Program-made: the position numbers and the translations under genes
In this document: piece by piece, positions 30,750-63,910 of the stretch
How the letters are laid out: every line of letters begins with the position of its first letter
Numbering within the stretch: position 1 is the first letter of the stretch
The notes under the pieces: generated by a model
What the model saw: the letters and a program-made list of their open reading frames with translations, nothing else
Databases searched by the model: none
Told to the model about the DNA's origin: nothing
Assembly (NCBI RefSeq): GCF_000219915.2
Contig: NC_017964.1
Location: 3,968,001-4,032,000, forward strand
Direction of reading: 5' to 3'
Length of the DNA stretch: 64,000 nt
Origin: Advenella kashmirensis WT001
Lineage (GTDB): Bacteria; Pseudomonadota; Gammaproteobacteria; Burkholderiales; Burkholderiaceae_B

Positions 30750-32771
30750 CTAGCGTTTGCCGCGAAGCCGGGCGATCAATCCTAACGCAGGGCGTATCGC
30801 CTTGCGCCATGGGGGCATTGCGCTTATCCCTGCGGCCTTCCAGTCCAGCAACTCATCCAGGGCGCTTTCCGGAGTGGTGTAGCGACCAGAGCGCCGGCTC
30901 ACGTAGCATGGATATAAAATAAGCACGCCGGCGACCAGTTCATCCAGGGACAGCGTACGATCACGCCGCGCAACGGGGTTCTTGTCGTCCGTCAGCCCCC
31001 AGCCAGCATAAAAAGGCTGCCCGAACGTGACCACCTTGCGGCCACGCAACAGTGCCTCAAAGCCGGCCAGCGAGGTCAATACATGCACTTCGTCAACCGA
31101 CGCAAACAGCTCGCCTATCGGATAATCCACCACAACTTCATTACACCAATCCAATGCCTGCTGCTCATTTTGTCCGGCGTCGCGCAGGCCAGCCACCACA
31201 TCCGGATGCGGTTTATAAACGACATAGGCATCCGGATTGGCATTGCGCACCGCCTTGAGCAGATCCATATTGCGTCGGACCGGAGACCCATATTTGATGG
31301 AAGCATCCGTTTCCACCTGCCCCGGCACCAGAATCACACGTGTGATCCCCGCAGGACGCTGCCAGCGTCCGGAACCGACGTTATATTTGGTCAGGTTCGC
31401 GGCCACAATCCGCTCACGAAGTGCCGCGGCACGCCCGCGCAGCGTATCGTCAAATACCGCCGTTCGCAAAATAGTTTCCAGATCCGAGGCACGGCTGGAA
31501 TCATAATAAATGCCGGTTCGGTCAATCACCCAGGATAAGGGCTGCACCAGATCGGCGCCCAGGCCCACCGAACGCAGGAAACCATCTTCCAGAAACACGC
31601 GTTGCCGGGCAAATTGCGTCACATCCGCAGGCCGGCCCCAGACCGCCAGGGTCCCCTCTCCGGGAAAATCGCTGGCTTTTTCCAGGAACCGAACCTCTGA
31701 GCCCTGGAAAAACCGCTGCACGATGGGCTTTTTCCAGCGGGAAAAGTTCGGTGCATAGACAGGCGAAGCAAAACGGTTACGCATGCGACGTTGCAACCCC
31801 ATCCACTCAATCAGTCTTTCTGGCTCGCAGCGTGTGCCAGTTTCCGGGTCCAGGTAGCGCGCGTAGCGAACCAGTGCTGCATGTACCAACTGCTCCAGCG
31901 AGGCCGGCTGACGGCGCACGGGCGCCGCCTGGGCATCCGTGGTCAGCCCGTATCCCGCATAAAACGGCATGCCAAATGTAAAGACAGGTTTGCCCCATAG
32001 CAGCGCTTCGAACCCGACCTGAGAAGTCACGGTATACACAGCTTGTGCCTGCTCTATAAGACGCACCGGATGGACATTATCAACCAGAATCCGAACGCGC
32101 GGGTTATTCTGCAGCTCAGCCAGATCAAAGTGCCCTTTCTTGTGGCCGGCAAATACATCCGGGTGAATCTTGATCAACACGTCGCAATCGGCATGTTGCC
32201 GCAACGCGCAATCGAGCATCACAGTAAAGTCTTCTGGCGAGGCCTGACCATAGCGCAGGGAGGCATCCCCAAACGTCTGGTCGGCCAGCAGCACGTATCG
32301 GGCGGGCAGCGAACCGGCAAATTCGGGCAAATGGTTGTATTTGGAAACGCGATTCTGGCGCCAGAGCGAGATGAGTGCCTGTGCCCGAGCGGTGGCAGCG
32401 GGATCCAGCGGTTGCGCGGCCAGATGTTCCAGCCAGGACGGGCTGCCGGCATCGTAATAAATCCCCTGGTGATCAAACACCACGGACAACGGCGGTTCGT
32501 CTACCCCCAGGCCAACGGAACGCAAAAAGCCGTCTTCCAGCAAACAGAACCGCCCGCCAGCAGAAGCGGCCAACCGGGCTGCTCGTAAACCGCTATTTTT
32601 GCGGCCCCAACCCAACCGCACTGCTTTGTTCGCCGTGCCAAGCCAGCTAATTTTCAGCGGTGCGTCCAGAAATGCAGGCAATGTGCGGTTGCGCCAAAGA
32701 CCGATATCCAATGGGCTGACAACATACGATGAAACCTGCGGATCAACCATCGCCTGCTGCCTGCCGGTCAT
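30750..32771 (-). CDS. kpsC: Capsule polysaccharide beta-Kdo transferase KpsC (LipB)
   Basis: A 673-residue protein with two homologous glycosyltransferase halves, as in KpsC. Half 1 has LLEDGFLRSVGLGVDEPPLS, IYYDAGSPSWLEHL and GFEALLWGKPVFTFGMPFYA. Half 2 repeats FLEDGFLRSVGLGADLVQPL, IYYDSSRASDLETIL and GFEALLRGRKVVTFGQPFYA. With KpsS it builds the poly-Kdo linker on phosphatidylglycerol that anchors and marks ABC-exported capsules. Its ATG overlaps the stop of the upstream CgeB-like gene (ATGA), indicating coupling. It closes this end of the capsule locus. Confidence 0.93.
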   Translation of the reverse strand: MTGRQQAMVDPQVSSYVVSPLDIGLWRNRTLPAFLDAPLKISWLGTANKAVRLGWGRKNSGLRAARLAASAGGRFCLLEDGFLRSVGLGVDEPPLSVVFDHQGIYYDAGSPSWLEHLAAQPLDPAATARAQALISLWRQNRVSKYNHLPEFAGSLPARYVLLADQTFGDASLRYGQASPEDFTVMLDCALRQHADCDVLIKIHPDVFAGHKKGHFDLAELQNNPRVRILVDNVHPVRLIEQAQAVYTVTSQVGFEALLWGKPVFTFGMPFYAGYGLTTDAQAAPVRRQPASLEQLVHAALVRYARYLDPETGTRCEPERLIEWMGLQRRMRNRFASPVYAPNFSRWKKPIVQRFFQGSEVRFLEKASDFPGEGTLAVWGRPADVTQFARQRVFLEDGFLRSVGLGADLVQPLSWVIDRTGIYYDSSRASDLETILRTAVFDDTLRGRAAALRERIVAANLTKYNVGSGRWQRPAGITRVILVPGQVETDASIKYGSPVRRNMDLLKAVRNANPDAYVVYKPHPDVVAGLRDAGQNEQQALDWCNEVVVDYPIGELFASVDEVHVLTSLAGFEALLRGRKVVTFGQPFYAGWGLTDDKNPVARRDRTLSLDELVAGVLILYPCYVSRRSGRYTTPESALDELLDWKAAGISAMPPWRKAIRPALGLIARLRGKR

Positions 32772-39656: not shown

Positions 39657-40833
39657 ATTGGCCCGCCTGTTCCACATCAGTCTTAGAAGCAAACAATCGC
39701 TGCGTTACAGTCTCAAAAAAAAGGCTGGAAATTCGATTCGGCCGGTAAGTTTCCAAGATTTTTTCAAAAACACTGTCATCGATACGGTAGGTCAGCGACC
39801 GGTCCAATGCATCAAGCAAATTGTCTCCATCGCCTCCTGAATATAGCAAATGGCTATCATCAGCAAAAGTCTGAGCGACCCCGGCGACGTTGGGTGCAAC
39901 CAGAGGTTTTTTGAAAGTTGCTGCCAGCAAGGATACGCCAGAATTGAGCGTCTTTACGTACGGAGCAACCAATACATCAGCGGCGTTGAAAAGAGTCTGT
40001 ATCTCTTTTTCCTGCATTGCACTCTGAATGAGACGGATCTCGGGCTCGTATGCAATCGCATCCAGTATTTGACCGACATACTGTTTGTCCACGGGATTGC
40101 CAGCAACGACTAAACGAAAACGCCGCAACGGATAACGCTGCTTTAACGACCGAAATGCATCGACCAGTTGCAGCACTCCTTTGTATGGCTGCAGAGCACC
40201 AAACTGAACGAACGCGAATTCGTCTGGTTCCAATCCTAAGTCCAGGCGGGCTGCCGCCTTGTCGCCCACATTGGCATACCAACCTTCATAAGAGGGATGG
40301 GGAACGAAAAAAATCTTATCATCCGGCACAGCGTAATACTTACGTGCTTCCTCTACAGACTGTTCTGAAAGAATATGTATCGCATCGGAGTTTTCTACCA
40401 GCACCCGGCGCAAGGCTATTTCCGCTTCAGGAAAATGAGTGTTATGAGGCAAAACATTATGGAGCGTCCAAAGAATCTTGTGACCTCCGCGCCGCCAACG
40501 GAGCATCTCCTGCTCGAATGCTACCACGCGCTCTTGCGTTTCAACTTGAGTCTCACTACCCGCGAGTACAGATGCCAGCCAATGCAAGTGAATTACGGAA
40601 CGTCCCTTCCAGTTTATGCTGGCCAGATCGGTAAACTGTACCGTTGGCACAACTGCGTAGCCCGCTTGGGAGGCGCGGCAGTACAACAGACGCTGAAAAG
40701 GATTGATCTGAGCCAGCGGGGCAAAAGTCAGGACATAAGGGAGGCCAGGTGAGGATTTCGCCTGTTCGCAAACCGCATTAATAAATAGCTCGGCAGGGCT
40801 CTGCACTCTGCTTACAAGATCCTGAACCCTCAT
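39649..40833 (-). CDS. Glycosyltransferase (GT1/GT4-like)
   Basis: A 394-residue GT-B enzyme. SVIHLHWLASVLAGSETQVE and ILWTLHNVLPHNTHFPEAEI form the N-terminal half. IHILSEQSVEEARKYY, VQFGALQPYKGVLQLVDAFR, RLVVAGNPVDKQYVGQIL and LFNAADVLVAPYVKTLNSG-type donor-binding features form the C-terminal half. It should transfer a sugar during capsule repeat assembly in the cytoplasm. It overlaps the next gene by 8 bases. Confidence 0.82.
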   Translation of the reverse strand: MRVQDLVSRVQSPAELFINAVCEQAKSSPGLPYVLTFAPLAQINPFQRLLYCRASQAGYAVVPTVQFTDLASINWKGRSVIHLHWLASVLAGSETQVETQERVVAFEQEMLRWRRGGHKILWTLHNVLPHNTHFPEAEIALRRVLVENSDAIHILSEQSVEEARKYYAVPDDKIFFVPHPSYEGWYANVGDKAAARLDLGLEPDEFAFVQFGALQPYKGVLQLVDAFRSLKQRYPLRRFRLVVAGNPVDKQYVGQILDAIAYEPEIRLIQSAMQEKEIQTLFNAADVLVAPYVKTLNSGVSLLAATFKKPLVAPNVAGVAQTFADDSHLLYSGGDGDNLLDALDRSLTYRIDDSVFEKILETYRPNRISSLFFETVTQRLFASKTDVEQAGQYV

Positions 40834-41007
40834 ACAGCAGAATCCGATGCATTATTGAAAAACACCATACAGCCAGCCAGTCCCCGTCTAATAGTTGTAT
40901 CCGCTAGTATTATTGACTATAACAAATTACTAAAACTCTCTTATATCTTACGAGTTATAAGTTTATTTGTCTATATGTAATACCCCCCTTTTTTCCACCG
41001 TGCGGGC

Positions 41008-42975
41008 TCATTTCGGGTGGCTGGGACGGCTGGGTCCTTCGCTCGAGTCAACTACGGTTGCAAAGACCTGTCTATTATTAAACTCTGCGAGTTGCTGATT
41101 CAAAGCTTCCAAGGCAGCTCTTTTCTCCTGGATTTGCTCCGCCGCCTGATCACTATCCAAGTCTTTCAATAACGGAGTGCGTTCCGAATATATTTTCTCA
41201 ATATCGCTACGGTATTCAATCAACTTATCCAGCTTCTCCTGATTTGCCTGCAGCGGCGCCAGATTTTCCATTTTCTTCTGGATTAACGTATGTAATTGTT
41301 GCTCATTGTCTCGTTGTTGTTGTTCCTGAAGTGCTCGTAGGCCCTGGATATACGCCTCGAACTCAGACTTCAGCGTCTCAATTTCTTTAGCGTGCTCGAT
41401 ACGTTGTTGCTCCTGTTCCGCCGTTTGCTTTTCCAGCATTGCCAGTTGTGATGCTCGTGATTGCAATTGCGATGTCAACTCTTTATTCTGCTGATCATGA
41501 GCAGCCAACAAGCTTGCCCGCTTTTCCAGCTCGGCATGCAACTCTTGTTGTTTTTTCTGCGCTTCACCTACCTCTACCCTCAGGCGTAGCAACTCGGCCG
41601 TATCTCCATCCTTTTCCTTAATCACAACAAGCAGTTTGTCTTTCTCTGTCTGCAACAGCTGCTGTTTTTTCTGTGCTCAACTCGGCCGCATCCTCATCCT
41701 TTTCCTTGATCACAGCAAGCAGTTTGCCTTTCTCTGCCTGCAATTGAGCCACCTCAGACTGAGTGTTCTCCAGAATAAAGGACATCTCCTCTCTTTTCTT
41801 TTTACTGTCTTCCAGAGCCGACTTCAACGCCTGTTGACCATCCAGTAACGCCTTTTGGCTGCGATTCTCTGCCCCCAGGCGCTCCACTTCGGCAGTCAAC
41901 CTCTCCCGCAACTCAATATCGGCACTGCCTGCGTGACTTCGTTGTGACAGCTGCTGCGCCTGGAATTCTTTTTCGCTTCGCTCCCGGGCGATCTCATCTC
42001 TCAGACGCTCAATCAGTTGATCGGCACTGGCTTCTTTGCGCTTTGCCTGATCCAGCTCCGTTTGCAAACGAATAATATCCGTCTGATCCGCAGCCGCAGT
42101 ATTTACTTGCAATTGTTCTTGCAAGCGCTCGTTCTCCGATTTCAAACTGCTACTTAACTGACAAATCTCTCGATACTTCATTTGGCAATCAACTAAGTCT
42201 TTTTTTATCCTTTGGTTGGCTGCCAGCAGATCATACTCGTGTTCTACGCGGTTCAACGCTGATAATGCCATGTGGTCGTCATCGTTCAATTTCGTTTTAT
42301 GGATAAACAAGTGAGTAGGCGTGGCGTTGAAAGTATTGCGATAGCAATACCCTAAAGTATTCAAATAAGAAGATATTTCTATGAAACTTTCCTTTGTCTG
42401 CGATTCTACGTAGAGCATTGGCAGATTGCTTTCGATGACTTTTTTTCCACCTTTCAAAACTTCCAGTTCCATTCCCTCAACGTCAATCTTGATTGCAGAA
42501 ACTGGAGCAGAAATGCCGAAAGAGTCGAGCGTTCTGACCTTGATCCGGCCGGTCCCTGTTCGCAATGACTGACCGCCTAGATTTTCCGGAATGGCATGGT
42601 CAAATTCTGCAAAGCCGGGCTTTGCGCCCAAAGCAAAAGCGTAAACAGTTACTTTTTCCTCCAAACCAGCTTCACTAGCCGTAATATCCATGGCGTGGGC
42701 CAATTCGTCATTCGCCTCAAAGGCAATCACCTGGCACCCCATAACCTGAGCAAGATAAAACGTGTGGTTCCCAATATTGGCCCCACATCCACTACTGTGC
42801 ATTCGGCAGCTAACCGTGACTTCATATCGGTCAGCATAGACAATTCGTACGGGACTCCCTTGGTCGCCAGGTTTTTCTGTATGTAGTCCCGGTCCGGAGA
42901 GGTCAAATAGATTGGGTAATCCACACCTTCTGCCGTTATAGTTGCAAAACGCGGTTCATCGGTAGGTTGGTTCAC
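41008..42975 (-). CDS. FkbM-family methyltransferase fused to a long coiled coil (frame breaks)
   Basis: Residues about 55-215 are an FkbM SAM-dependent methyltransferase: VVDVGANIGNHTFYLAQVMG, VIAFEANDELAHAMDI, RTLDSFGISAPVSAIKIDVE and GMELEVLKGGKKVIESNLPM. From about residue 235 the protein is almost all heptad-rich coiled coil to its end (about 656 residues). The frame breaks at the CCCC run 42781-42784 (one base) and in the A6 run at 41665-41670 (net +1 or -2). The sequence coheres on both sides. A methyltransferase plus coiled-coil ruler is the architecture of WbdD, which caps and measures O9a chains, so a chain-terminating role is inferred. The start is GTG 42975. Confidence 0.8.
41591..41744. 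repeat. Tandem duplication within the coiled-coil coding region
   Basis: Two copies of about 65 bases (41591-41657 and 41679-41744), roughly 90 percent identical by eye, encode EKDKLLVVIKEKDGDTAEL and EKGKLLAVIKEKDEDAAEL. The spacing is near 30 residues after allowing for the frame break. Coiled-coil length here appears to have grown by duplication. Confidence 0.75.
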
Positions 42976-43739
42976 GGTCGAAATTCTCTGGCAAAGTTAA
43001 TGAAGTTGATGCCGCCGCATGACGCGACACTGTATTGGGAAAGAGCAGTATATGCAATGAACATTATAATTTTACGAAAGAATCTATGTTAGTCTCAAAA
43101 TGTAAAAGATTCGACCGTGTTATCTTAATAGTAAGCGTTCAATAAGGCGGATTATCTGAGCCTAACGGCTTGAGTTGGTAAGCACTCAGTAAAATCAATC
43201 TACCCAATATCCGATCTCGCACGCACCACGCCCGTTGGGGGCGTGGGCAGCGCACTGAGGTCTTTTAAGTGGACCATAGCGCTCACATCATTTCTCTTGG
43301 TTGCTGACTGATTCAAGCTTACTACGGTAGAGTTGCGGGCTACCTATCCATGCTAGTACCGACACGTCTCCAGCAGAGGCAGATTCCTTTTCATACGCTT
43401 CCGATGGCGCACGGTTTGTCAATGGCTTAGAGAACTTATCGGGAACATTACTCGATCAAGTGAGCCCCAAGGTTTCTTACGCCTCGACTGCATGGATCAT
43501 AAATTGCACAACAGTCTCCTCGTGCATTCTCTCCAAGCCCCAATTGCGAGAATTAACGTCAATACAGCATTCCCGCAAGATGCATTTCGATGGGAAATTT
43601 CGCAAAAAATAGCGAAAAAATCGTTATAGCAAGATTGTGTAGAATTGGACAAAGCCCAAATCGGAAAATCAATATGAAACATAAATATGATAAAATCAAT
43701 CATTATGTTAATAAATATTACTAATGTAAGTGGCGACAT
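42976..43739. other. Long non-coding stretch in the capsule island
   Basis: About 760 bases upstream of the FkbM gene and the YfbU gene show no convincing gene in any frame. A GC-rich hairpin CCACGCCC-GTTGG-GGGCGTGG lies at 43226-43246 without a T-run. The composition is patchy, which suggests decayed DNA from past rearrangements, though I recognise no transposase fragment. Confidence 0.5.
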
Positions 43740-44268
43740 ATGGAATCCAACACCGAAAAAATTATTCTTTCAATGGTGTGTCAAATCCGCAACCATGTAA
43801 AAGTCCTCTGGACGAGCTTGATTTAGATTTCATAGAGGACGCCATCAGGTATCGTCAATCTTGGGCGTTAGCATGGAAATATGGTCCTAGTTTAGGCCTA
43901 ACTAGGGAAAAGAGTCGCCGAAAGTTGCAGAAGACGCGGACATTTTGACCATGTGGCGCAATATCGAAGAAGCTTGCAGTAACCTGTCTGATCATGAAAT
44001 AAATGAATTGGTTGCCGGAATCCCAGAGCAGAGAAGTATCACCTTCCAAGGGTTTGATGCGGGGGAAGAACCTGAGTTCCTTTTCATCGCGTTATTCATG
44101 ATCGAGAAATTAGAGCTTTTCAGAGAATTCGACTATCGTGACATCAATTCGCGAACACCAACAATAGATGATTATCGAGCGATGCATAAAGCCTTCGATA
44201 CAATATCGAGTCAACGAAAAAGAAGTCACTTGACCCTGAAAGAAGTGACTGGGATATTGAATGCTTAG
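43740..44268 (+). CDS. YfbU-family protein (two frame breaks)
   Basis: Three frames join to a YfbU-like protein of about 176 residues. MESNTEKIILSMVCQIRNHV runs to the A4 run at 43799-43802. SPLDELDLDFIEDAIRYRQS and WALAWKYGPS continue to GGG at 43905-43907. SPKVAEDADILTMWRNIEEA, SITFQGFDAGEEPEFLF, FDYRDINSRTPTIDDYRAMH and LTLKEVTGILNA finish it. The FxGFD and terminal IINA/ILNA motifs are typical of YfbU (PF03887-type) proteins, whose function is poorly known. It is on the opposite strand to its capsule neighbours and is probably a passenger. Confidence 0.7.
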
Positions 44269-44647
44269 AAAAATTAGCTATCTCAGAAACCAAAAATAGC
44301 TCTGCGAGATCATCCTGCATGTAAAAATTTTACATTTCAATCTTCGAGCTTGATGGCAAACCGATTTACTTCGGCGCTACCTACGTAAACATTCAGAAAA
44401 CACGCGCAAATACGACCGTGTTAGCGGCCGTTAACTTTTTGTCCGCAATTTAAAGAGTCAAGCGATGTGGCAGCAAGTAAGTGCAGAAGCTTCACAATCG
44501 CTGCTTGCGTAATGGCTCTGCATTTTATTTTCAATACACAAAACTAATGCGATGGCGACAACCAAGGTCTGATGTACGATGGTAGTCGCTTCGCTTATAT
44601 CAAGGTTGCTTTGCCTGACTTACAACTGATCAACTCAATTCACTTAG
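44269..44647. other. Intergenic region with a possible gene remnant
   Basis: A plus-strand open stretch at 44325-44453, opened by a stop and lacking a start codon, encodes FELDGKPIYFGATYVNIQK and TRANTTVLAAVNFLSAI, which reads like real protein. It may be a fragment of a lost capsule gene. The rest of the region has no clear features. Confidence 0.3.
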
Positions 44648-51387: not shown

Positions 51388-54300
51388 TTAGGAGACGAAT
51401 AAACAAATTTCCTTGCCTATAGTGTTTTCAAAGTTGCTACGATTATTTACGTGTGAGCTTGCAGTAGCAGACAGCGAAAGGAACTTATCTGGATTGCGGT
51501 AAAGATCTTCTACGGCGTCCGCTATTTTAATAGGGTCTTCCGGAGGAACAATCAGGCAATTCGTGTCGTCTACAAATTCCGGGATAGCAGCAACATTTGT
51601 TGTAATAGGGACGAGACCAGATGACATTGCTTCATCCCTTGACACTCCCTGAGTATCCATTCGCGTTGGAACCAGAAAAATTCCGTTTTGGCTATGAAAA
51701 CCGGCAATTTCTCTATGCGTCAGAAACCTCTTTATCAACTGCACGTTTGTAAACTCCCGCAATGGCTTGACTGTATTGTCAAAAAGTTCGCCATCACCTA
51801 CAAGGGTGAATTTCAATTGTTCAAAAAACGGCCGCTTAGATAATTCTAAGATAGCAGCGACGGTTAAATCATTTGCATAGACTAGCTTTGCGTAAGGTCG
51901 GATGGACAATAGCTGAAGACGACTTTCTGGATTCTTAGCCGAATAAGTGAAAATACTAGGATCAATAAAATTACTTATCACTGAGTAAAACTGATTAGGT
52001 ATCTGAATGCCTAAATCGTCCTGAGTAGTGTCCGCCAACCATTGCGATACAAATACGAAGTGCAAGTTAGGATGCTTAAGAGAAAAAATATCTCTCCAAA
52101 ACTTAGTACGGTTATCAGAGAGTTTTTTCTGCCGCTTAATCTCGTTAGGCGCCATATTCTTAAATTCAAAAGCTCGATGTTTCCAATGCTGGATTTCCGA
52201 CCCATGAATCCACACGATTATCTTTGCAGCATCCAGATACGGTCTTAATGCTTCCCACATTTTCTCGTCTAAAATATGCACCATTACTGTCTTGAATTGG
52301 CCCGTAGACAGGGTTGATTTCAATAAGTTGTGGTCTCCGGACGCAACATCAATACCCTCGAACTCACGATAACAATTGACATCGTCATTTGTTAGTCGAT
52401 ACATATCGGAAAACGCCGCGTTATTCTTATACGCACGAACCCTAGAATGAAGAAAACCATATTTATAAAGATCATGATAATCGGGATACTGTTTGCTCAC
52501 AATTAGTCGATTACTTTTTCCTATCACAGCAAATGGACGCTCACCTTTTGAGCCACAAACCAGTTTTTCGAGCGAAATTTGACCGCTTGCCTGAATTTTC
52601 AAACCAAATCGAACGTACACGCAGTTCTCTGGGATCGCGAGGGCATGAGTATCACCAGCTTTATTTATGGAATGAGCAATTTTTTTCTCGTTTTCATCTT
52701 GGAATTCAAACACCGTAGAAACTGACAAGCTCCCAGAACAATGCAATTTGAATTCGCTATTGAGAACCAAATTTAACTCATCTCTTCTAAAGTTCCTATT
52801 GGTGTAGACATACGCGTGCTTATTCTCGGGTAATTTGGATACAATTTTAAATTTATCTTTGGCAAGCGAAAATTGAATTGTACTAGAGGCCGGTTTTGGT
52901 ATGAACTCAAAAAGCTGTTGAGCAGTTAGGCCTAATTCTTTTTGAGGCGCCGTACTGCCAAACTCCATCTCGTCCATAGGCTGTAACCCCTCAGCAATCG
53001 AAATCAACTGATTTGAGTAAGATACACCTTTATCCTCCACTGATAAATCACCTACCCAAAAAAGCAATTTTTTTACATCAGCAGCTGCACCATTTTTACA
53101 ATAATGAAATTCGTCAGTTGCCACCATGTCTCCATTGGCATAGACTAGATTACTTGGATCATCATATATATCATTTACAAGCGTATTTGTTAATGCACTT
53201 CGCCGAACGATAGAAGCTCGAGCACATAGTGTCGTAGCTGGTTTATATTGTTGCCCGTCGCCTTCCAATACGATTTGGTCGCCATGGAACGAGTAGTGAG
53301 CACCCTTGCCGATTATGTTTACATGTGTATATTTGACAGCCAATGCCAAATCTGACAAGTACTGCTCGCCGTAGTAATCCTTCGAATCAAAAACAGCAAC
53401 AAATGCAGCAAACTCCATCTCATTCAAAAATGAAACAAATTCATTTTTATTTTCAAAAAAATGATAATTCTCTCCTTCAAACCGAGTTAATGTACCGATC
53501 GAAGAAAGTATCAATAGTTGTTTATTGTCGTAGCATTGTTCATTAAAACATTTTCGAGCTGCATTGTAGTCTTCAACAGAATTCACTTTGGCAACGACGA
53601 ATATTTTCGGTCTGGTCACGGAATAGGTTTTATCCGATAACTTTGCGACAATATAGGCTAAACGATGAGAATATGTATGCTCCGAAAATACCTTCCTTAA
53701 CCCAAGCAGTCTGAATTTTTTAAAACTAAGTTCGTCATTGCAAAACGCCTCCAGTTGCGAACGCAACTGTGCTGAACTATCAGAAGAAACGACTAAATCA
53801 CCAAATAGCAATCGGACACCCCGCGAAAAATTAGATACCACTACGGTATTGGATGCCAACAGTTCAAATACTCGCCTAGCGAACATAGTCTGTGATTGTT
53901 TAATGGTGTTCATATTGATACCGTAGCGGTATCCTTTATAAGCTTTATCAATTTCAGAAAATGGCAATTTTCCTAGGATAAAACGTTTGTATTTCTCGGG
54001 AAACGTGTAATGGGGATGAGGGTTATCAAAATTTCGGTCGAATATCTCCACATCTCTAAATCTCTCCACGGTATCAATGAGTGATGCAAAATCACGCTGG
54101 CGTTCCGGATAACGTAAATAATACGACCCTGCAAAATTGAAGGCGTCCTTCCGCTCGTATATTTCAATCGGATTATGGGTCTTCGGTTGTGCTGCGAATG
54201 GCAGAAGATACACGCGACTATGTCCAAGCTTTTTCTTGTACTTAGGAATACAATCAATATCAGTGGTAAATACAAAATCCACCATGCTAGCCAATGGAAT

Positions 54301-54822
54301 AAATGTCCCGAAATGCACGGGATCTTCTTTATTCCAAAACATAGTTGCAATTTCATTCTTCTTACACCACGCAATAGCCCCCTGAATTTCCTCTTTTGCA
54401 TTGCTAATTTTTGTTTTCCAAAGTCCGTCGAGTCCTTGCCATGCAGATTCGATGAACAGCAGGTCCGGCTTAAATTCCTCAAGTTGAATTTCCCAATTAT
54501 CGGGATTGAGTTGCAAAATTTCAGCTTCGGGTGCATAAGAATGGTACGTAAATTCGTCCATCACAGCAGCAATTTTTAGCTTTACGGGCGCCTGTTGCGT
54601 ATCGAGCAGATCACCAGTTTCGCGCAGGAGAAGTTGCGGGCTAAGTGCTTTCGTGACACTAGCCGATTTATTCATATCGCGGCTATCCGCCAACAGAGAT
54701 TTTTTTTCTCTTCGAATTTTGGCATCACGGTATATCCGAACGAGAGCCCCTGGCAAATTGATGAAGCCTCTGAATGATTTTGTTGCTTGCAATATTGCAA
54801 ATCCTGTTCTATATGAAATCAT
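51388..54822 (-). CDS. Giant multi-domain glycosyltransferase (CgeB-like + GT4)
   Basis: 1144 residues with at least four regions. At 83-395 is a CgeB-like domain (FKPDLLFIESAWQGLDGLWK, TMFWNKEDPVHFGTF, DFVFTTDIDCIPKYK, FARRVFELLASNTVVVSNFS). At 405-600 is an alpha/beta region resembling the start of a GT2 fold (PKIFVVAKVNSVEDYNAARK, YGEQYLSDLALAVKYTHVN). At about 650-770 is a beta-sandwich. At about 790-1144 is a GT4 domain (IIVWIHGSEIQHWKHRAFEF, FVSQWLADTTQDDLGI, FTLVGDGELFDNTV, DTQGVSRDEAMSSGLVPITT). It probably adds two or more sugars of the repeat unit. Its start overlaps the stop of the coiled-coil gene by 14 bases. Confidence 0.8.
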   Translation of the reverse strand: MISYRTGFAILQATKSFRGFINLPGALVRIYRDAKIRREKKSLLADSRDMNKSASVTKALSPQLLLRETGDLLDTQQAPVKLKIAAVMDEFTYHSYAPEAEILQLNPDNWEIQLEEFKPDLLFIESAWQGLDGLWKTKISNAKEEIQGAIAWCKKNEIATMFWNKEDPVHFGTFIPLASMVDFVFTTDIDCIPKYKKKLGHSRVYLLPFAAQPKTHNPIEIYERKDAFNFAGSYYLRYPERQRDFASLIDTVERFRDVEIFDRNFDNPHPHYTFPEKYKRFILGKLPFSEIDKAYKGYRYGINMNTIKQSQTMFARRVFELLASNTVVVSNFSRGVRLLFGDLVVSSDSSAQLRSQLEAFCNDELSFKKFRLLGLRKVFSEHTYSHRLAYIVAKLSDKTYSVTRPKIFVVAKVNSVEDYNAARKCFNEQCYDNKQLLILSSIGTLTRFEGENYHFFENKNEFVSFLNEMEFAAFVAVFDSKDYYGEQYLSDLALAVKYTHVNIIGKGAHYSFHGDQIVLEGDGQQYKPATTLCARASIVRRSALTNTLVNDIYDDPSNLVYANGDMVATDEFHYCKNGAAADVKKLLFWVGDLSVEDKGVSYSNQLISIAEGLQPMDEMEFGSTAPQKELGLTAQQLFEFIPKPASSTIQFSLAKDKFKIVSKLPENKHAYVYTNRNFRRDELNLVLNSEFKLHCSGSLSVSTVFEFQDENEKKIAHSINKAGDTHALAIPENCVYVRFGLKIQASGQISLEKLVCGSKGERPFAVIGKSNRLIVSKQYPDYHDLYKYGFLHSRVRAYKNNAAFSDMYRLTNDDVNCYREFEGIDVASGDHNLLKSTLSTGQFKTVMVHILDEKMWEALRPYLDAAKIIVWIHGSEIQHWKHRAFEFKNMAPNEIKRQKKLSDNRTKFWRDIFSLKHPNLHFVFVSQWLADTTQDDLGIQIPNQFYSVISNFIDPSIFTYSAKNPESRLQLLSIRPYAKLVYANDLTVAAILELSKRPFFEQLKFTLVGDGELFDNTVKPLREFTNVQLIKRFLTHREIAGFHSQNGIFLVPTRMDTQGVSRDEAMSSGLVPITTNVAAIPEFVDDTNCLIVPPEDPIKIADAVEDLYRNPDKFLSLSATASSHVNNRSNFENTIGKEICLFVS

Positions 54823-55876
54823 TCCATAAACACGCTCTTTTTTCGCGTGTTACTTTTTGCTCAAGCTCAGCGATAACTGTCTTATACTTTTTTTCCCTAG
54901 CCAGCAGCCCAGCAATATTTGTTTGAAGCTTTGAGAATTTTTCCTCCAAACTATTGAACTCCACTTGTTGCTGTAGTCTACGCGCTCGTTCATCATGCAA
55001 CTCTGCATTTAGATTCGATAAAGAATTTTTTTGACTACTAAATTGACTAATCAATTCAGTTTTCTCTACTTGGATTAAATGCAACTCTTCTTTCGCAACT
55101 CTAAGCTCATCAAACAGTGCTGCTTTTTCACTAATTAACTTGGAAGCAGAATTTTTCGCAAACAACGATTTCTCATGTTCGTAATCAGAATCTTTGCGCT
55201 TCAGCGTTAGTCGCAGGTTATCAATCTCTTGCTCAAGCGATTTAATAAGTAGAGTGCTATTTTTCTTTTCCTGACCAATCGTCAATTTCGCAGAATCATA
55301 TTGTTCCTGCAATTTAGTCGCGGTAGCTCGGTATGCATTGAGACGCTGCTCCGCGAGCTGATAATCAGACACGACACGCTCATTTTTAAGCTGCAACTCG
55401 TCACGCTGCTTTATTAAATCTCGGGTTTCCTGTTCGTATGCATTGTACGCAACCCGCAGAGAGCGAAGGTCTTCCTCCAGTGAAGCTCTAAAACGAAGAC
55501 TTTCCTCAAGTTCATGCTGCTTCTCAGCTAACATACTTTCAAGCTTATTGATATTTTCTTTTAGAAACCCTATTTGCTTAGCAGTATTTTCGAATTCAGA
55601 CTCTATCTCCCGCGCTAGTGAAGTTATTTCTTCGTCTTTCGAGAGGAAATTTGCTTGCATTGAGTCCATGAGTTGTTGATTGCTTTTCAAAACAGACTCA
55701 AGTAGAGAAATAACTTTTCTCTGCTCCGAGATAATGGAATTCAACGAATCAGCTTTCTCAATCCACAAATTTTCCTCAAACTTATGAATTTGGATGGTCC
55801 TATTTAATTCATTTTCCAACTTAATGATAGCTAGATCTTTATTATTAATGTTTGTGGTGATGTCGGACATGCTCAT
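54809..55876 (-). CDS. Coiled-coil protein
   Basis: 355 residues, nearly all predicted coiled coil: regular heptads from residue 13 on (DLAIIKLENELNRTIQIHKF, LESVLKSNQQLMDSMQANF, LEQEIDNLRLTLKRKDSDYE). There is no signal peptide, membrane segment or enzyme motif. It overlaps the 1144-residue glycosyltransferase gene by 14 bases, so the two are coupled and probably form a complex. It could act as scaffold or length gauge, like the coiled-coil part of the FkbM fusion elsewhere in the locus. Nothing more can be said from sequence. Confidence 0.75.
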   Translation of the reverse strand: MSMSDITTNINNKDLAIIKLENELNRTIQIHKFEENLWIEKADSLNSIISEQRKVISLLESVLKSNQQLMDSMQANFLSKDEEITSLAREIESEFENTAKQIGFLKENINKLESMLAEKQHELEESLRFRASLEEDLRSLRVAYNAYEQETRDLIKQRDELQLKNERVVSDYQLAEQRLNAYRATATKLQEQYDSAKLTIGQEKKNSTLLIKSLEQEIDNLRLTLKRKDSDYEHEKSLFAKNSASKLISEKAALFDELRVAKEELHLIQVEKTELISQFSSQKNSLSNLNAELHDERARRLQQQVEFNSLEEKFSKLQTNIAGLLAREKKYKTVIAELEQKVTREKRACLWNDFI

Positions 55877-58601: not shown

Positions 58602-59261
58602 TCAGCTTTCGCTTTCATATCGCTTGATACCCGACTCTATGTCGTTATATGCATATACTTTTCCATCGTCGACAACTAAGACGTAATCACACATAGCACG
58701 GACTTGAGACATTGAGTGCGTTACAAGTATGACCTTAGACTTACTAATCCGATCTTTGAATGCTTGAGTAGCCTTGTTTCTGAAGTGCGCATCACCGGTA
58801 GACATCGCCTCATCAATCAAATAATAATCAAAATCAAATGCAAGACTTAGACCGAATGCAACACGAGATCTCATGCCAGAGGAAAAAGTTTTAACCGGGC
58901 GGTCAAAATAACGGCCAATTTCGGCGAATTCTTCAACGAATTTGACAATCTGCCGCATACGTTCCCCTTCTGCGCCATACACGCGGGCAACAAATTTCAC
59001 GTTTTCTCTGGCCGAAAGCGTGCCCTGAAAGCCGCCAGACAATCCAACCGGCCAAGAAATCGAACCACTTACTTTGATGTGCCCTCTATCGGGCACATCC
59101 AATCCGCCAATTAGACGTAATAACGTCGACTTACCAGCTCCGTTTCGTCCTATTAATGCGACATTACGCTCCGGTGGAACCAAGACTGATAGGTCGCGAA
59201 ATATATATTCTCTACCAGTAGTAGTCTGATACGATTTTGTGATATTACGAATTTCAATCAT
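58602..59261 (-). CDS. kpsT: Capsule ABC exporter ATP-binding protein
   Basis: A 219-residue ATPase. Walker A IGRNGAGKST ends at residue 46, the signature is TFSSGMRSRVAFGLSLAF (SSGM 127-130) and Walker B is YYLIDEAMSTGD with the switch His in VILVTHSMSQVRAM. SISWPVGLSGGFQGTLSARE is characteristic of KpsT/CtrD. It drives export of the finished chain through KpsM. Its ATG overlaps the kpsM stop (ATGA). The length matches KpsT without the carbohydrate-binding extension seen in Wzt. Confidence 0.95.
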   Translation of the reverse strand: MIEIRNITKSYQTTTGREYIFRDLSVLVPPERNVALIGRNGAGKSTLLRLIGGLDVPDRGHIKVSGSISWPVGLSGGFQGTLSARENVKFVARVYGAEGERMRQIVKFVEEFAEIGRYFDRPVKTFSSGMRSRVAFGLSLAFDFDYYLIDEAMSTGDAHFRNKATQAFKDRISKSKVILVTHSMSQVRAMCDYVLVVDDGKVYAYNDIESGIKRYESES

Positions 59262-60049
59262 ATTGCTATCAATTTGAAACGTCGCAATCGATATAGACCC
59301 ATTGCCAGGAGCAATGTGAATATTGCGGCTCTCATCGGATACATAATATTGACGCCTGTATGGAGCGGATAGTAATCAAACATCGCGAATCTCAATTCGT
59401 CAATTATGTGTAAATATGGATTCCATAACAGCCAATCCATTACTTCAGCAGGAAACACCCAAATCGGAAATATCACGCCAGAAAGTAAATATAGAGGAAA
59501 AAATAGCATTCGAATAATCACTTTGCTTTCAGCGAATAATTCACCAATTATGCAAAAAATCAATCCCAATGAAAACGAAAACATTACTCCGACAAAAATG
59601 ACTACTATCCAACGTAGCGGATCACGAATAGAGACATCGTAACCAAAACAAAATCCCAAAATAAACATGAAGATAACAAATACGCATGCGTATAAAGCAG
59701 TCTCCATTATGGCTCTGGCTAAAACGGTATCGATAGGTTTAATTTGCTTGTAGCTAAATAAGGCTCGATTGGCATTCACCGCTTCCATGCCTTTCAACGC
59801 AATATTTCTTAGCAAAAAGAAAGGCACCATGCCGGACATGAAAAACACGGGCATTTCTATACCACTAGCTAAATGCACATCACGAAATGAGAAAATCGCC
59901 ATTATCAGCCCGATCTGCATTACAGGCTCGAAAAACATCCAGAATGCACCGAACCGCCGTGCACTGAACATACTGCGCATTTCCCTCAATATCAGTGCAA
60001 ATAGTACAGATTTGACGATTTTGATGGGAGGACGATTTTGAAACGTCAT
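59258..60049 (-). CDS. kpsM: Capsule ABC exporter permease
   Basis: A 263-residue ABC-2 membrane protein of the KpsM/CtrC family. LILREMRSMFSARRFGAFWM is the amphipathic N-terminal motif, and about six hydrophobic segments follow (VFFMSGMVPFFLLRNIAL, FVIFMFILGFCFGYDVSI, IFVGVMFSFSLGLIFCIIGE, FFPLYLLSGVIFPIWVFPAE). It forms the inner-membrane channel with KpsT and couples to KpsE and KpsD for passage through the envelope. Confidence 0.94.
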   Translation of the reverse strand: MTFQNRPPIKIVKSVLFALILREMRSMFSARRFGAFWMFFEPVMQIGLIMAIFSFRDVHLASGIEMPVFFMSGMVPFFLLRNIALKGMEAVNANRALFSYKQIKPIDTVLARAIMETALYACVFVIFMFILGFCFGYDVSIRDPLRWIVVIFVGVMFSFSLGLIFCIIGELFAESKVIIRMLFFPLYLLSGVIFPIWVFPAEVMDWLLWNPYLHIIDELRFAMFDYYPLHTGVNIMYPMRAAIFTLLLAMGLYRLRRFKLIAI

Positions 60050-60062
60050 TTGAGACTCTCAA

Positions 60063-61181
60063 TCACAATCTATTAATCGTCCGACCCAACACGATCGTCT
60101 GAACGATTGGAGATATTATTTTGTTCCACTCATAAACTGGTGCATTCGTTACATAAACCGCATCTTCAGGATGCACCTGGAAAGCCCTTGCCAAAAATAT
60201 TGACTCTGGTTTCCGCATGTCCAATCTAAACACTTCCGCAGCAGGCTCTCCTGCCTTAGGCTCCGGATTTACTCTAAATACAAACACGCCTTGTGGGTCT
60301 GCTTTGGTCTCATCCAACCCTCCGACCGACCCTAGCACCTCCAATAGACTGGGGTTACGCGCAGGCAAATCCTTAAGACCGGGATCTTTAACCGAGCCCA
60401 TCGCAACAAAACGTTGACGAGCACGTTCTACAATGATCTCAGAACGTGGTGCCACCTGCTTGTTTCCGCCCTCCAATACATCCTCGTAATTAACTGTGTA
60501 AGCCTGTTTGCCATTTCGAACGACCACATTAATGAGGTGTGGCTCCATCAGTGGGCCGCCCGCCATGTTAATGGCGTCCAAAATTGTCAACGGTCCCTGC
60601 AAACTTGAGAAGCGACCTGGTGCCTTAACTGCTCCAGCGACAAGTACGGAGCCAGACAAATCGCCCACTAGTTCACTATGGACTTGCGGATCAGTAGCAA
60701 CCGACCCTTTTAGTTCTTTTCTAATTGCCTTATCCACTTGAGCTAACGTATTGCCCCGCACATTCACGGTACCGGCATATGGGAGTGTGATTGTTCCTTC
60801 GCTTGACACACGAACGTTGTCGAAAACTGTACCGCCCGAAGCAAGTGGGGCAAAGACACCACCCTCCGCCGAGTCTGAAATCATGATTTTCATGACATCG
60901 CCTGGAATCAGCTTTATGGTGGTAGATCCCGTTTTGGATACTTTGGCGGAAGGAGGCATTGGAGCCTTGCGAGAATACTCGTTGACATTGAGCGGGCTGA
61001 GGTCGATTACCTTGTATGGTAAATCAGTTTCAGGCCCACCACCGTCGCGAATAGCGCTGCTATACGGGCCTGTTCCCGACAATATTGACCCACATCCAGA
61101 CAACATAGCGGTAAAAAAAAGCACGCTCATCATTCGAAAACAGCGAACACGGGAAAACCTTTGCTGGGTGTATGGATACAT
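60063..61181 (-). CDS. kpsD: Capsule polysaccharide export lipoprotein (KpsD/Wza/CtrA-like)
   Basis: A 372-residue outer-membrane export protein. It has a lipoprotein signal (MMSVLFFTAMLSGC), a Poly_export (PES) domain (LIPGDVMKIMISDSAEGGVF, RVSSEGTITLPYAGTVNVRG) and SLBB-type repeats (VLVAGAVKAPGRFSSLQGPL, TILDAINMAGGPLMEPHL, FVAMGSVKDPGLKDLPARN). A late beta part (DAVYVTNAPVYEWNKIISPI) precedes the C-terminus. It is smaller than E. coli KpsD and closer to Wza/CtrA in build. It forms the exit pore with KpsE as the periplasmic bridge. Confidence 0.92.
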   Translation of the reverse strand: MYPYTQQRFSRVRCFRMMSVLFFTAMLSGCGSILSGTGPYSSAIRDGGGPETDLPYKVIDLSPLNVNEYSRKAPMPPSAKVSKTGSTTIKLIPGDVMKIMISDSAEGGVFAPLASGGTVFDNVRVSSEGTITLPYAGTVNVRGNTLAQVDKAIRKELKGSVATDPQVHSELVGDLSGSVLVAGAVKAPGRFSSLQGPLTILDAINMAGGPLMEPHLINVVVRNGKQAYTVNYEDVLEGGNKQVAPRSEIIVERARQRFVAMGSVKDPGLKDLPARNPSLLEVLGSVGGLDETKADPQGVFVFRVNPEPKAGEPAAEVFRLDMRKPESIFLARAFQVHPEDAVYVTNAPVYEWNKIISPIVQTIVLGRTINRL

Positions 61182-61237
61182 TATGATTCACCAAGATTAA
61201 ACAATTGCAGTCTATTAACAACGGTACACATTTGATG

Positions 61238-62347
61238 TCAGTCCTTGTGATCTTCGATTGTTGCCATAACAAAACGTACTATTCCATATAAGGCTAGAAG
61301 GGCGATGAGCACAGCTAAGAGGTTATACAGGCGATCCGGATAAATCGCTCGATCAGGCATATTGGGGCTGGTAATTACGGCAAGACTACGGAATTTCTTG
61401 TTCATTTCAATGCGGGTATTTTCTAACGATGCAAGACTAATTTTGTAGGCCTCTTCAGCAATTTTTGCTCGAATCGACAAATCGCGAAAAGTAGCTGCTA
61501 CTGTGTTTAATTGATGGCTTCCTTCTCTTGAAATCAATCGCTTGTTTTCTGCAGCTAACTGCTGAGCCATTGCTTCAATCCTACGCCGCTGCTGTTGTAC
61601 TTGAGGAGCGGTTGCACTTAATGAAGATTGCAGTGCTGTAAGTTTTGCCTTCTCAGTCGCCAATTCTGCCTCCATCGCCGCAATCATCTGTGAGCGTGAA
61701 GCAATTGTCGCCTCAGCATCAACAAGATTGTTTTTAGCTTGAAAGGCCAACATTTCATCACGCCGCAATTCGTAATTAGTACGTGCAGTTTGCAACTCCC
61801 GTTCAACAAAAGCCAGTTGATCTCTTGTTAATTTATGCGACAATTCATTAACAAAATGCTCGCTTTCCTTTAAGATCACACCAAGGATTTTTTCTGAGAA
61901 ATCCGGGTCAAATGCCTCGACTTGCACATTTAATAAACCGGTTTCGGTGTCAAAGTGCACCTGCACAACTTTACGAAAATACGATAGGGCATCTTCCTGA
62001 CGGGCATCTTTATCTAACCAATAAAATGGATCTGTATAAATTGACGCGTAATGTTCCATCCAATTCACTTCTTTTTTGAGAACATTTAACATGTCATTTG
62101 AAACGATATACTCCCTCAAAAATAACGTCTCTTCTCTGGATGTCGGATTTGTAGCTCCCAATAATAATGCCAAGCCGGGAGCATTACTGATCGCGGAGTT
62201 TGCATTATCTGTTTGTCGCACAGCAACTTGAGCAGTACTGACATACCTATTGGTCGCAAATACGGTGTAATAAATAATTGCCACCACAAAAGGGATGAGA
62301 ACAATGCCAATAAATAAAAACCGGTTTTTAGGAGATGAATTTGACAT
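61238..62347 (-). CDS. kpsE: Capsule export inner-membrane adaptor (KpsE/CtrB, PCP family)
   Basis: A 369-residue polysaccharide co-polymerase-type protein. N-terminal membrane helix FLFIGIVLIPFVVAIIYYTV, periplasmic domain (TNRYVSTAQVAVRQTDNANS, FLREYIVSNDMLNVLKKEV), a long helical hairpin (about 175-300) and C-terminal helix LLAVLIALLALYGIVRFVM. FRSLAVITSPNMPDRAIYPD before the last helix is the conserved PCP proline-rich motif. It starts the long minus-strand capsule operon; kpsS is divergent. Confidence 0.94.
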   Translation of the reverse strand: MSNSSPKNRFLFIGIVLIPFVVAIIYYTVFATNRYVSTAQVAVRQTDNANSAISNAPGLALLLGATNPTSREETLFLREYIVSNDMLNVLKKEVNWMEHYASIYTDPFYWLDKDARQEDALSYFRKVVQVHFDTETGLLNVQVEAFDPDFSEKILGVILKESEHFVNELSHKLTRDQLAFVERELQTARTNYELRRDEMLAFQAKNNLVDAEATIASRSQMIAAMEAELATEKAKLTALQSSLSATAPQVQQQRRRIEAMAQQLAAENKRLISREGSHQLNTVAATFRDLSIRAKIAEEAYKISLASLENTRIEMNKKFRSLAVITSPNMPDRAIYPDRLYNLLAVLIALLALYGIVRFVMATIEDHKD

Positions 62348-62633: not shown

Positions 62634-63910
62634 GTGATAATTGAAGGAATCGAAGCGTTCAGCGGCAAGAACATTTTGCTATTGCAAGGACCGGTGGGTC
62701 CTTTTTTTCGTCGCTTTGCAACTGACCTTCGGCGCCAGGGTGCAACCGTGCACGCTATCAATTTCAACGGCGGCGATTGGCTCTTCAATGGTAAGGATGC
62801 GATCAATTTTCGCAGCCATCCCCGGGAGTGGCGCAGTTTTTTTGAGAATCTGCTGAACGATCTGGATATTGACATCGTCTTCCTGTTTGGCGATTGCCGC
62901 CCCATTCACGTTGTTGCCCACCAAATCGCAACCCAGTACGGCGTACAGATCGGTGTTTTTGAAGAAGGCTACGTGCGGCCAAATTTCATCACACTTGAAA
63001 AAAACGGCGTGAATAACCATTCAAGCGCGGCCCGGGAAGCACAATTTTATTTCAGCCAGAAGGCCATTCCAACACCCAGGGAAAAACAGGTGGGCTATGC
63101 CTTCCCCCAAATGATGACGTGGGCGTTCCTGTATTACGTCTGTAGTTTGCTGCTCAAGCCCTTCTTCTGGCACTATCGCCATCATCGGCGCTTGCATATC
63201 ATAGAAGGGTATATCTGGACCCGCAGTTTCCTGCGCAAGGCCTATTACCGTATCACAGAGCGGAATATGCAGAAGAAGCTGACCACGACGCTCTCCAAAC
63301 AGTATTTCCTGCTGCCGCTACAGGTCTATAACGATGCCCAGATTCATACCCATTCTGACTTTGCAACGGTAGAAACCTTTATCCGTCATGTGGTTACGTC
63401 GTTTTCCAAGCATGCGCCTTTGGGCACCCACCTGGTGATCAAACACCACCCCATGGACCGCGGTTATAACGATTATTCCAACTGGCTGCAGCAACTGGAG
63501 TTTCTGTACGATTTGTCCGGTCGCGTCCATTACATTCATGATCAGCATTTGCCTTCCTTACTGGATCACGCCATTGGTACTGTCGTGGTAAATAGTACCG
63601 TGGGTCTGTCCGCCTTGTTACACGGCTCTCCACTTAAGGTTTGCGGCCGTGCCATGTATGACTTCAAGGGACTTACTTACCAGGGACCCTGGATGAGTTT
63701 TGGCGTGAGGCACAGGACGAGAAAGTGGACAGCAAGCTTTTTGACTCATTCCGTAACTATCTGATTGCGACCACGCAAATCAATGGTAATTTCTACAAGC
63801 GCATCAAAGGTGAGAAAGCCGCCACTGGCCTGTCCTGGGTCGCGCTGAAAAACGACGCAGATTCAATCCAACCGAACAAGTTTCGAACCGACAGCCACAT
63901 CCACGGCTGA
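62634..63910 (+). CDS. kpsS: Capsule polysaccharide Kdo transferase KpsS (one frame break)
   Basis: About 425 residues after repair. KNILLLQGPVGPFFRRFATD, INFNGGDWLFNGKDAINF, DIVFLFGDCRPIHVVAHQIA, VFEEGYVRPNFITLEKNGVN, HLVIKHHPMDRGYNDYSNW and TVVVNSTVGLSALLHGSPLK are hallmarks of KpsS. A missing base in the CCC run 63687-63689 shifts the frame after GLTYQGP; the correct tail is LDEFWREAQDEKVDSKLFDS to HIHG. KpsS adds the first Kdo to lyso-phosphatidylglycerol and KpsC extends it. The start is GTG 62634; a better start is not seen. It is divergent from kpsE. Confidence 0.88.

What the first reader, a model, noticed from the sequence alone, without database searches (positions are those of the whole stretch)
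41008..42975. FkbM methyltransferase fused to a long coiled coil: a possible capsule chain-length ruler
In E. coli O9a, WbdD uses a methyltransferase/kinase domain plus a coiled coil to cap chains at a set length before ABC export. Here an ABC-exported capsule locus has a different methyltransferase family (FkbM) joined to about 400 residues of coiled coil, enlarged by an internal duplication. It may be an independently evolved ruler that stops growth by methylating the non-reducing end.
Basis: partly seen in the sequence, partly recalled or inferred. Interest (0 to 1): 0.75.

Follow-up and report, generated by a model that had tools for sequence, protein, structure and literature searches.

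The report
Possible capsule chain-length ruler protein
A soil bacterium's capsule gene cluster holds a methyl-adding enzyme joined to a very long rod-like tail, built like proteins known in other bacteria to stop a growing sugar chain at a set length, but made from a different enzyme family and broken in this genome copy.

Summary
Relatives carry it as one open gene (608-740 aa), so methyltransferase and coil belong together. The genome is Advenella (Tetrathiobacter) kashmirensis WT001 by exact contig sizes. It is frameshift-rich, and metabolic genes outside the capsule locus are broken too. An intact relative folds as an FkbM methyltransferase followed directly by about 420 helical residues, with no kinase between. 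Both ends are conserved; the coil middle is diverged and 134-262 residues long. In 14 of 33 relatives examined, the same methyltransferase and a coil are fused to the locus's own polymerase family, 190-576 residues apart. In four related capsule loci a different methyltransferase sits on the same coil-polymerase. This is the layout of known coiled-coil chain terminators (WbdD, K. pneumoniae O7). I call it a new variant of a known kind, in a KpsMT capsule system, where a review calls length control open (PMC12220298). Capping of the chain end and control of length are inferred, not shown.

The parts
42727..42975 (-). First open piece: start of the FkbM-coil gene (N-terminal end of the methyltransferase)
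   Evidence: ORF; 68% identical to the start of the G007 protein
41618..42802 (-). Second open piece: rest of the FkbM methyltransferase domain and first half of the coil
   Evidence: ORF; PF05050; 69% identical to G007
41008..41655 (-). Third open piece: second half of the coil, conserved C block ending ERTPLL, and tail
   Evidence: ORF; last 103 residues 92% identical to P0002
41530..41743 (-). Duplicated block inside the coil
   Evidence: Direct repeats D1 (66 nt, 89%) and D2 (34 nt, 76%)
51388..54822 (-). Likely polymerase: DUF3880/Glyco_trans_1_2 and Glyco_trans_1_4 regions
   Evidence: Pfam; same family fused to FkbM-coil in relatives
54809..55876 (-). Coil of 355 aa, N-terminal part of the polymerase protein in relatives
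   Evidence: Heptad signal 0/200 shuffles; in one ORF with the polymerase in G003 (1553 aa) and with its first ~900 residues in G007 (1266-1275 aa)
58602..60049 (-). ABC transporter KpsT (219 aa, no C-terminal carbohydrate-binding part) and KpsM
   Evidence: Pfam
60063..62347 (-). KpsD-like and KpsE-like export proteins
   Evidence: Pfam Poly_export/SLBB and Wzz
62634..63764 (+). KpsS-like Capsule_synth gene (frame broken near its end)
   Evidence: Pfam; frames
30750..32771 (-). KpsC-like Capsule_synth gene
   Evidence: Pfam, three stretches

Best explanation
The gene encodes a chain-capping methyltransferase held at the far end of a long coiled-coil spacer, working like the known coiled-coil terminators of ABC-exported glycans. 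The FkbM domain is proposed to O-methylate the non-reducing end of the capsule chain. The coil keeps it tens of nanometres from the polymerase (51388-54822, itself with a coil at 54809-55876), so that only chains long enough to reach it are capped. The conserved C block (ending ERTPLL) is proposed to dock on the polymerase or the membrane. KpsMT then exports the chain on its Kdo lipid. Shown here: FkbM domain and predicted fold, coil-like helices, one gene in relatives, capsule locus, fusion to the same polymerase family in relatives, exchange of the methyltransferase module. Inferred: methylation of the chain end, docking, control of length, polymerase activity. In this strain the gene is broken as sequenced.
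For: One open gene in relatives. AlphaFold2 of relative P0003: methyltransferase at residues 10-228, then helices 236-292, 298-437, 443-550, 556-620, 622-648 and 659-683. Conserved ends and a diverged middle of variable length: methyltransferase 62-83%, C block 51-88%, middle 24-38% with 134-262 residues, in ten pairs among five relatives. Same polymerase family in one protein with FkbM and a coil in 14 of 33 relatives examined, 190-576 residues between. Different methyltransferase (Methyltransf_11) on the same coil-polymerase in four Kps loci (Pfam run on two of the four). In-frame tandem repeats in the coils of some relatives, e.g. 147 bp in L013 and 84 bp in L022. In K. pneumoniae and E. 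coli the coil is described as a marker of terminators (PMC11231755, passages).
Against: No activity, product or chain-length data. G001 and G009, same genus, have the polymerase but no FkbM match, and G001's stretch shows no coil-rich protein among 21 long ORFs, 3 of them scanned with Pfam. Some polymerases of this family have neither coil nor methyltransferase attached. KpsT lacks the carbohydrate-binding part that couples capping to export in E. coli O9a (role from general knowledge). The coil length is not conserved among orthologues, as expected of a fixed spacer (349-477 residues; PMC5082667, passage). Heptad signal not significant in P0002 (57/200). The gene is broken here.
Confidence: 0.55

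Rival explanations
1. The FkbM enzyme decorates internal sugars of every repeat. The coil only tethers it to the polymerase complex, so that it methylates the chain as it grows and sets no length.
For: Fusion to the polymerase fits co-synthetic decoration equally well; FkbM enzymes are a broad family not limited to chain ends (general knowledge).
Against: A coil of hundreds of residues between the two active sites is not needed for decorating each repeat. In the described systems the coil goes with termination (PMC11231755, passages).
Confidence: 0.2
2. The coil is a scaffold that oligomerises and gathers the assembly enzymes at the membrane; the methyltransferase has some capsule role, but the coil does not measure length.
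For: Coil length is not conserved among orthologues (349-477 residues). In G086 and G139 an FkbM enzyme and a coil protein are separate neighbouring genes, so the enzyme need not sit on the coil.
Against: In the fused proteins the methyltransferase lies at one end of the coil and the polymerase at the other, the arrangement described for rulers.
Confidence: 0.15
3. In this strain the locus is decaying and the gene is a dead remnant without present function (this concerns the strain, and can be true together with any of the above).
For: Two frame changes here and further breaks in the locus: the sugar dehydrogenase, the KpsS-like gene and the coil/polymerase boundary. The genome paper counts 578 frame-shifted genes and argues that they are real (PMC3669393, passages).
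Against: The same kind of break hits otherwise 90-98% conserved metabolic genes (CoA-transferase near 12110-12128, altronate-type dehydratase near 27519-27534). The assembly rests on Ion PGM reads at 37x, a method known for indel errors in base runs (general knowledge). The last 103 residues of the gene are 92% identical to an intact relative. The second frame change lies at a repeat, not a base run, and is less easily an error.
Confidence: 0.3

Closest known systems
WbdD of E. coli O9a/O8 and K. pneumoniae O3/O5 (PMC3482155, PMC11231755, PMC5082667; passages)
   Same: N-terminal methyltransferase, extended coil, conserved C-terminal end, ABC-exported glycan; the O8 form is described as a simple methyltransferase without kinase
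   Different: FkbM-family methyltransferase; no kinase; KpsC/KpsS capsule locus with a KpsT lacking the extra C-terminal part; longer coil (about 52-71 nm if fully helical, my arithmetic, against about 20 nm stated for WbdD)
ORF6 of K. pneumoniae O7 (PMC11231755, passages)
   Same: Methyltransferase, coil and polymerase modules in one protein; orthologues with or without the C-terminal glycosyltransferases, as seen here
   Different: O7 has a kinase domain, a carbohydrate-binding domain and GT2 modules; here FkbM alone and DUF3880/GT4-type modules
WsaE of Geobacillus stearothermophilus (PMC2943079, passages)
   Same: N-terminal methyltransferase fused to two glycosyltransferase domains; methyl cap on the chain end
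   Different: S-layer glycan; [quoted passage not shown] not compared by sequence here
FkbM family methyltransferase, 2py6 of Methylobacillus flagellatus
   Different: 2py6 is a 409-aa chain matched only over the methyltransferase domain; its function in a glycan is not known to me

Membership tests
FkbM family methyltransferase | PF05050 / TIGR01444 domain above the curated cut-off | tested here: met
   63.1 bits against 22.7; 73.7 against 37.7
FkbM family methyltransferase | Class I methyltransferase fold | tested here: met
Coiled-coil chain terminators of ABC-exported glycans | Catalytic domain at one end of an extended coil | tested here: met
   Relatives; window pieces:
Coiled-coil chain terminators of ABC-exported glycans | Polymerase at, or recruited to, the other end of the coil | tested here: inconclusive
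   Fused in 14 of 33 relatives, but separate in the window; docking not tested
Coiled-coil chain terminators of ABC-exported glycans | Locus with an ABC transporter | tested here: met
   KpsM and KpsT
Coiled-coil chain terminators of ABC-exported glycans | Cap added to the non-reducing end | not testable with these tools
   No product known
Coiled-coil chain terminators of ABC-exported glycans | Coil length sets chain length | not testable with these tools
   Needs strains and capsule sizing
WbdD (E. coli O9a type) | Kinase domain between methyltransferase and coil | tested here: not met
   Model of relative P0003 goes from the last strand at 228 into helix at 236; note that O8 WbdD also lacks it
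WbdD (E. coli O9a type) | Sequence relation of the methyltransferase to WbdD | tested here: inconclusive
   No WbdD named in the PDB hits at E <= 0.01 or <= 1; absence from a list does not exclude it
WbdD (E. coli O9a type) | ATPase with a C-terminal carbohydrate-binding part that reads the cap | tested here: not met
   KpsT is 219 aa with the ABC domain at 22-153 and no further domain
ABC-exported (KpsMT) capsule locus | KpsC, KpsS, KpsM, KpsT, KpsD and KpsE present | tested here: met
   Pfam domains; conserved in G007

The most novel reading that the evidence does not exclude
Some KpsMT capsule systems carry an exchangeable cap-and-ruler cassette: a methyltransferase (FkbM or Methyltransf_11) on a coil whose length changes by tandem duplication, working in cis or in trans with one conserved polymerase. 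This would be the missing chain-length factor of these ABC-exported capsules, with coil length as the evolvable setting.
Probability: 0.35. Interest if true: 0.7.

Novelty: new variant of a known kind. Interest (0 to 1): 0.5.

Why it matters
A 2025 review says it is open whether ABC-exported capsules have uncontrolled length or an unidentified length factor (PMC12220298, passages). If this protein caps and measures the chain, it is a candidate factor for some of them. Relatives carry the same polymerase family with coils of very different length and with two methyltransferase families, so natural variants would make the ruler idea directly testable outside O antigens.

Tried and rejected
Rejected: methyltransferase and coil as separate genes (single open genes in relatives). 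Rejected: a chance duplication (66 nt at 89%). No Rfam match in the window at gathering scores or at E <= 0.5 in 40800-44700; no tRNA. A search for other proteins with the C block (P0003 residues 596-690) found only P0003 itself and missed the known relatives P0004-P0006, so it is uninformative. The tree's count of label changes (11) is not used: labels were set by text patterns and are wrong for at least L015, L019, L021, L027 and L048; only the placement of rows is used, from a quick search with one kind of support. WbdD is not named in the PDB sequence hits or fold rows; this is no evidence of absence. A 12-kb stretch of the second contig found no match in the plasmid collection, which may leave the own genome out. 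Repeat units in relatives' coils are 21, 84 and 147 bp (heptad multiples: L011, L022, L013) but also 69, 75 and 129 bp (L026, L056, L037); TRF found nothing in 17 of 25 regions, the window's included; L026 and L056 also have smaller units. The Foldseek search of the model could not be run.

Papers: passages only were seen of PMC11231755, PMC3482155, PMC2943079, PMC12220298, PMC5082667 and PMC3669393; all others only as search listings. Searches for an FkbM-coil terminator or a coil ruler in a KpsMT capsule (titles, starts of abstracts and term counts looked at) showed none that I recognised in this open-licence library, which lacks most subscription papers.

Full report
What is there. On the minus strand between 42975 and 41008 lie three open pieces in two alternating frames. 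The middle one carries an FkbM methyltransferase domain (PF05050, E 4.7e-17), and the rest is coil-like by composition. Relatives carry the same protein as one open gene: P0002 (608 aa), G007 in the same genus (740 aa) and P0003-P0006 (660-690 aa); P0002 and P0004 begin late as listed, and P0007 stops early. The last 103 residues of the window's third piece are 92% identical to P0002. The three pieces are therefore parts of one gene. The internal duplication is real, and the second frame change lies at it.

Which genome. The assembly holds contigs of 4,365,995 and 57,884 bases, exactly the chromosome and plasmid sizes given for Tetrathiobacter (Advenella) kashmirensis WT001 in PMC3669393 (passages). 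That paper reports 578 genes with potential frameshifts and argues that sequencing errors are very unlikely. The reads were Ion PGM at 37x, with SOLiD data for scaffolding. In the window, frame breaks between well-conserved halves also occur in a CoA-transferase (near 12110-12128) and a sugar-acid dehydratase (near 27519-27534), outside the capsule genes. I think sequencing error is at least as likely as decay for the first break and cannot decide for the second. That G007 is A. mimigardefordensis is my recollection of its size only.

Neighbourhood. The gene lies in a KpsMT-type capsule locus: genes with the domains of KpsC, KpsS, KpsM, KpsT, KpsD and KpsE, a GDP-mannose gene, a UDP-GlcNAc 2-epimerase and a nucleotide-sugar dehydrogenase, two heparinase-like proteins and several glycosyltransferases. 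A second long coil (54809-55876) and a 1144-aa protein with two glycosyltransferase regions (51388-54822) lie in one open frame in G003 (1553 aa); in G007 the coil and the first 900 residues or so are one frame, and the rest is a second frame in that assembly. I take this protein as the likely polymerase; that is inference.

The strongest new evidence is modular. Of 33 relatives examined, chosen from the hits match both FkbM and this same polymerase family in one protein, with 190-576 residues between the two. Besides G003 of the window's genus, they come from Gammaproteobacteria, Alphaproteobacteria, Campylobacterota and Actinobacteria by record title. P0008, P0024, L018, L021 and L022 are cut at an end; L012 matches only the first part of the polymerase, at 34%; L020 and L021 are from one MAG. 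FkbM is also found ahead of quite different glycosyltransferases: GT2 in L026, L030 and L041, GT4 in L017 and L066, GT25 and another GT2 type in L037; the part behind the methyltransferase is clearly coil-like (P+G 3-4%) in L037, L041 and L066 and less clearly (6-9%) in L017, L026 and L030. Conversely, among 268 genomes of the family, 24 carry the polymerase at E <= 1e-60. In four of these (G091, G094, G096, G154) its N-terminus is a long coil with a Methyltransf_11-like domain instead of FkbM (Pfam run on G096 and G154; the other two by their close likeness), in loci with an ABC-2 membrane gene and Capsule_synth genes within about 15 kb. The window's polymerase falls with these four, G007 and one of G003's two polymerases (7 rows, support 91; within 15 rows, 97; quick method). 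G003 has both an FkbM-coil-polymerase and a coil-polymerase; its FkbM-coil keeps a form of the C block about 50 residues before the polymerase part. That is why I propose that the free C block is the docking site. In Aliarcobacter (L048) FkbM-coil and the polymerase lie in one Kps locus, with a run of N inside the coil, so fusion there is likely but not read.

Counter-evidence. G001 and G009, same genus, have the polymerase but no FkbM match at E <= 1e-10, and G001's stretch shows no coil-rich protein among 21 long ORFs, 3 of which were scanned with Pfam. Several polymerases of this family have neither coil nor methyltransferase attached. In G086 and G139 an FkbM enzyme with a different front part and a separate coil protein (633 and 741 aa) are neighbours in ABC-transporter loci that look Kps-like by my reading, so the functions can be unfused. 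Of 23 genomes searched (a 24th was not held), by my reading an ABC-2 membrane gene lies within 25 kb of a polymerase match on the same contig in 15, and a Capsule_synth gene within 50 kb in 11; several misses are on short contigs. Heptad periodicity is significant in G007 and in the second coil but not in P0002. Orthologous coils differ in length, which a strict spacer would not be expected to do.

Comparison with what is known. Proteins with a terminator and a coil are described for K. pneumoniae O3, O4, O5, O7 and O12; a ruler role is said to be established for E. coli O9 (identical to K. pneumoniae O3) and O12, and the strategy is called widespread (PMC11231755, passages). O8 WbdD is described as a simple methyltransferase (PMC3482155, passages). 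WsaE is a further parallel (PMC2943079, passages). What differs here is the FkbM family, the KpsC/KpsS capsule setting and the longer coil. The library has no paper that holds the words FkbM, coiled-coil, polysaccharide and glycosyltransferase together. A review calls chain-length control in ABC-exported capsules open (PMC12220298, passages). I file this as a new variant of a known kind; its function remains inferred.

Noticed in passing
window 12110-12128, 27519-27534, 57142-57153, 63662-63701, 54809-54822: Frame breaks between well-conserved parts of single genes (CoA-transferase, altronate-type dehydratase, nucleotide-sugar dehydrogenase, KpsS-like, coil/polymerase), by comparison with G007.
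   Followed up: partly
L163, L164 (G139, G086): ABC-transporter loci with a separate coil protein (741 and 633 aa), a neighbouring FkbM enzyme with a different front part, and, a few kb on, a polymerase without coil: an unfused version of the same set.
   Followed up: partly
L015, L019, L020: The FkbM-coil-polymerase fusion occurs in Gram-positive Actinobacteria by record title (Paenarthrobacter, Cellulomonas, Agrococcus), with no Capsule_synth match in those genomes.
   Followed up: no
L013 5012-5367, L022 10721-10926: Nearly perfect in-frame tandem repeats inside the coil: 147 bp x 2.4 (97%) and 84 bp x 2.5 (98%), 49 and 28 residues, both heptad multiples.
   Followed up: partly
L048 about 11241-11371: Aliarcobacter Kps locus with FkbM-coil and polymerase; a run of N lies inside the repetitive coil where two long frames overlap.
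   Followed up: no
window 34082-35710: Hint-domain protein of 542 aa inside the capsule locus; conserved in G007 (79-83%).
   Followed up: no
window 44648-47838: Two neighbouring heparinase II/III-like proteins in the capsule locus; similar domains in the loci of G091 and G154.
   Followed up: no
L102, L103 (G003): Two polymerase-type proteins in one capsule locus, one with FkbM-coil and one with coil only.
   Followed up: partly
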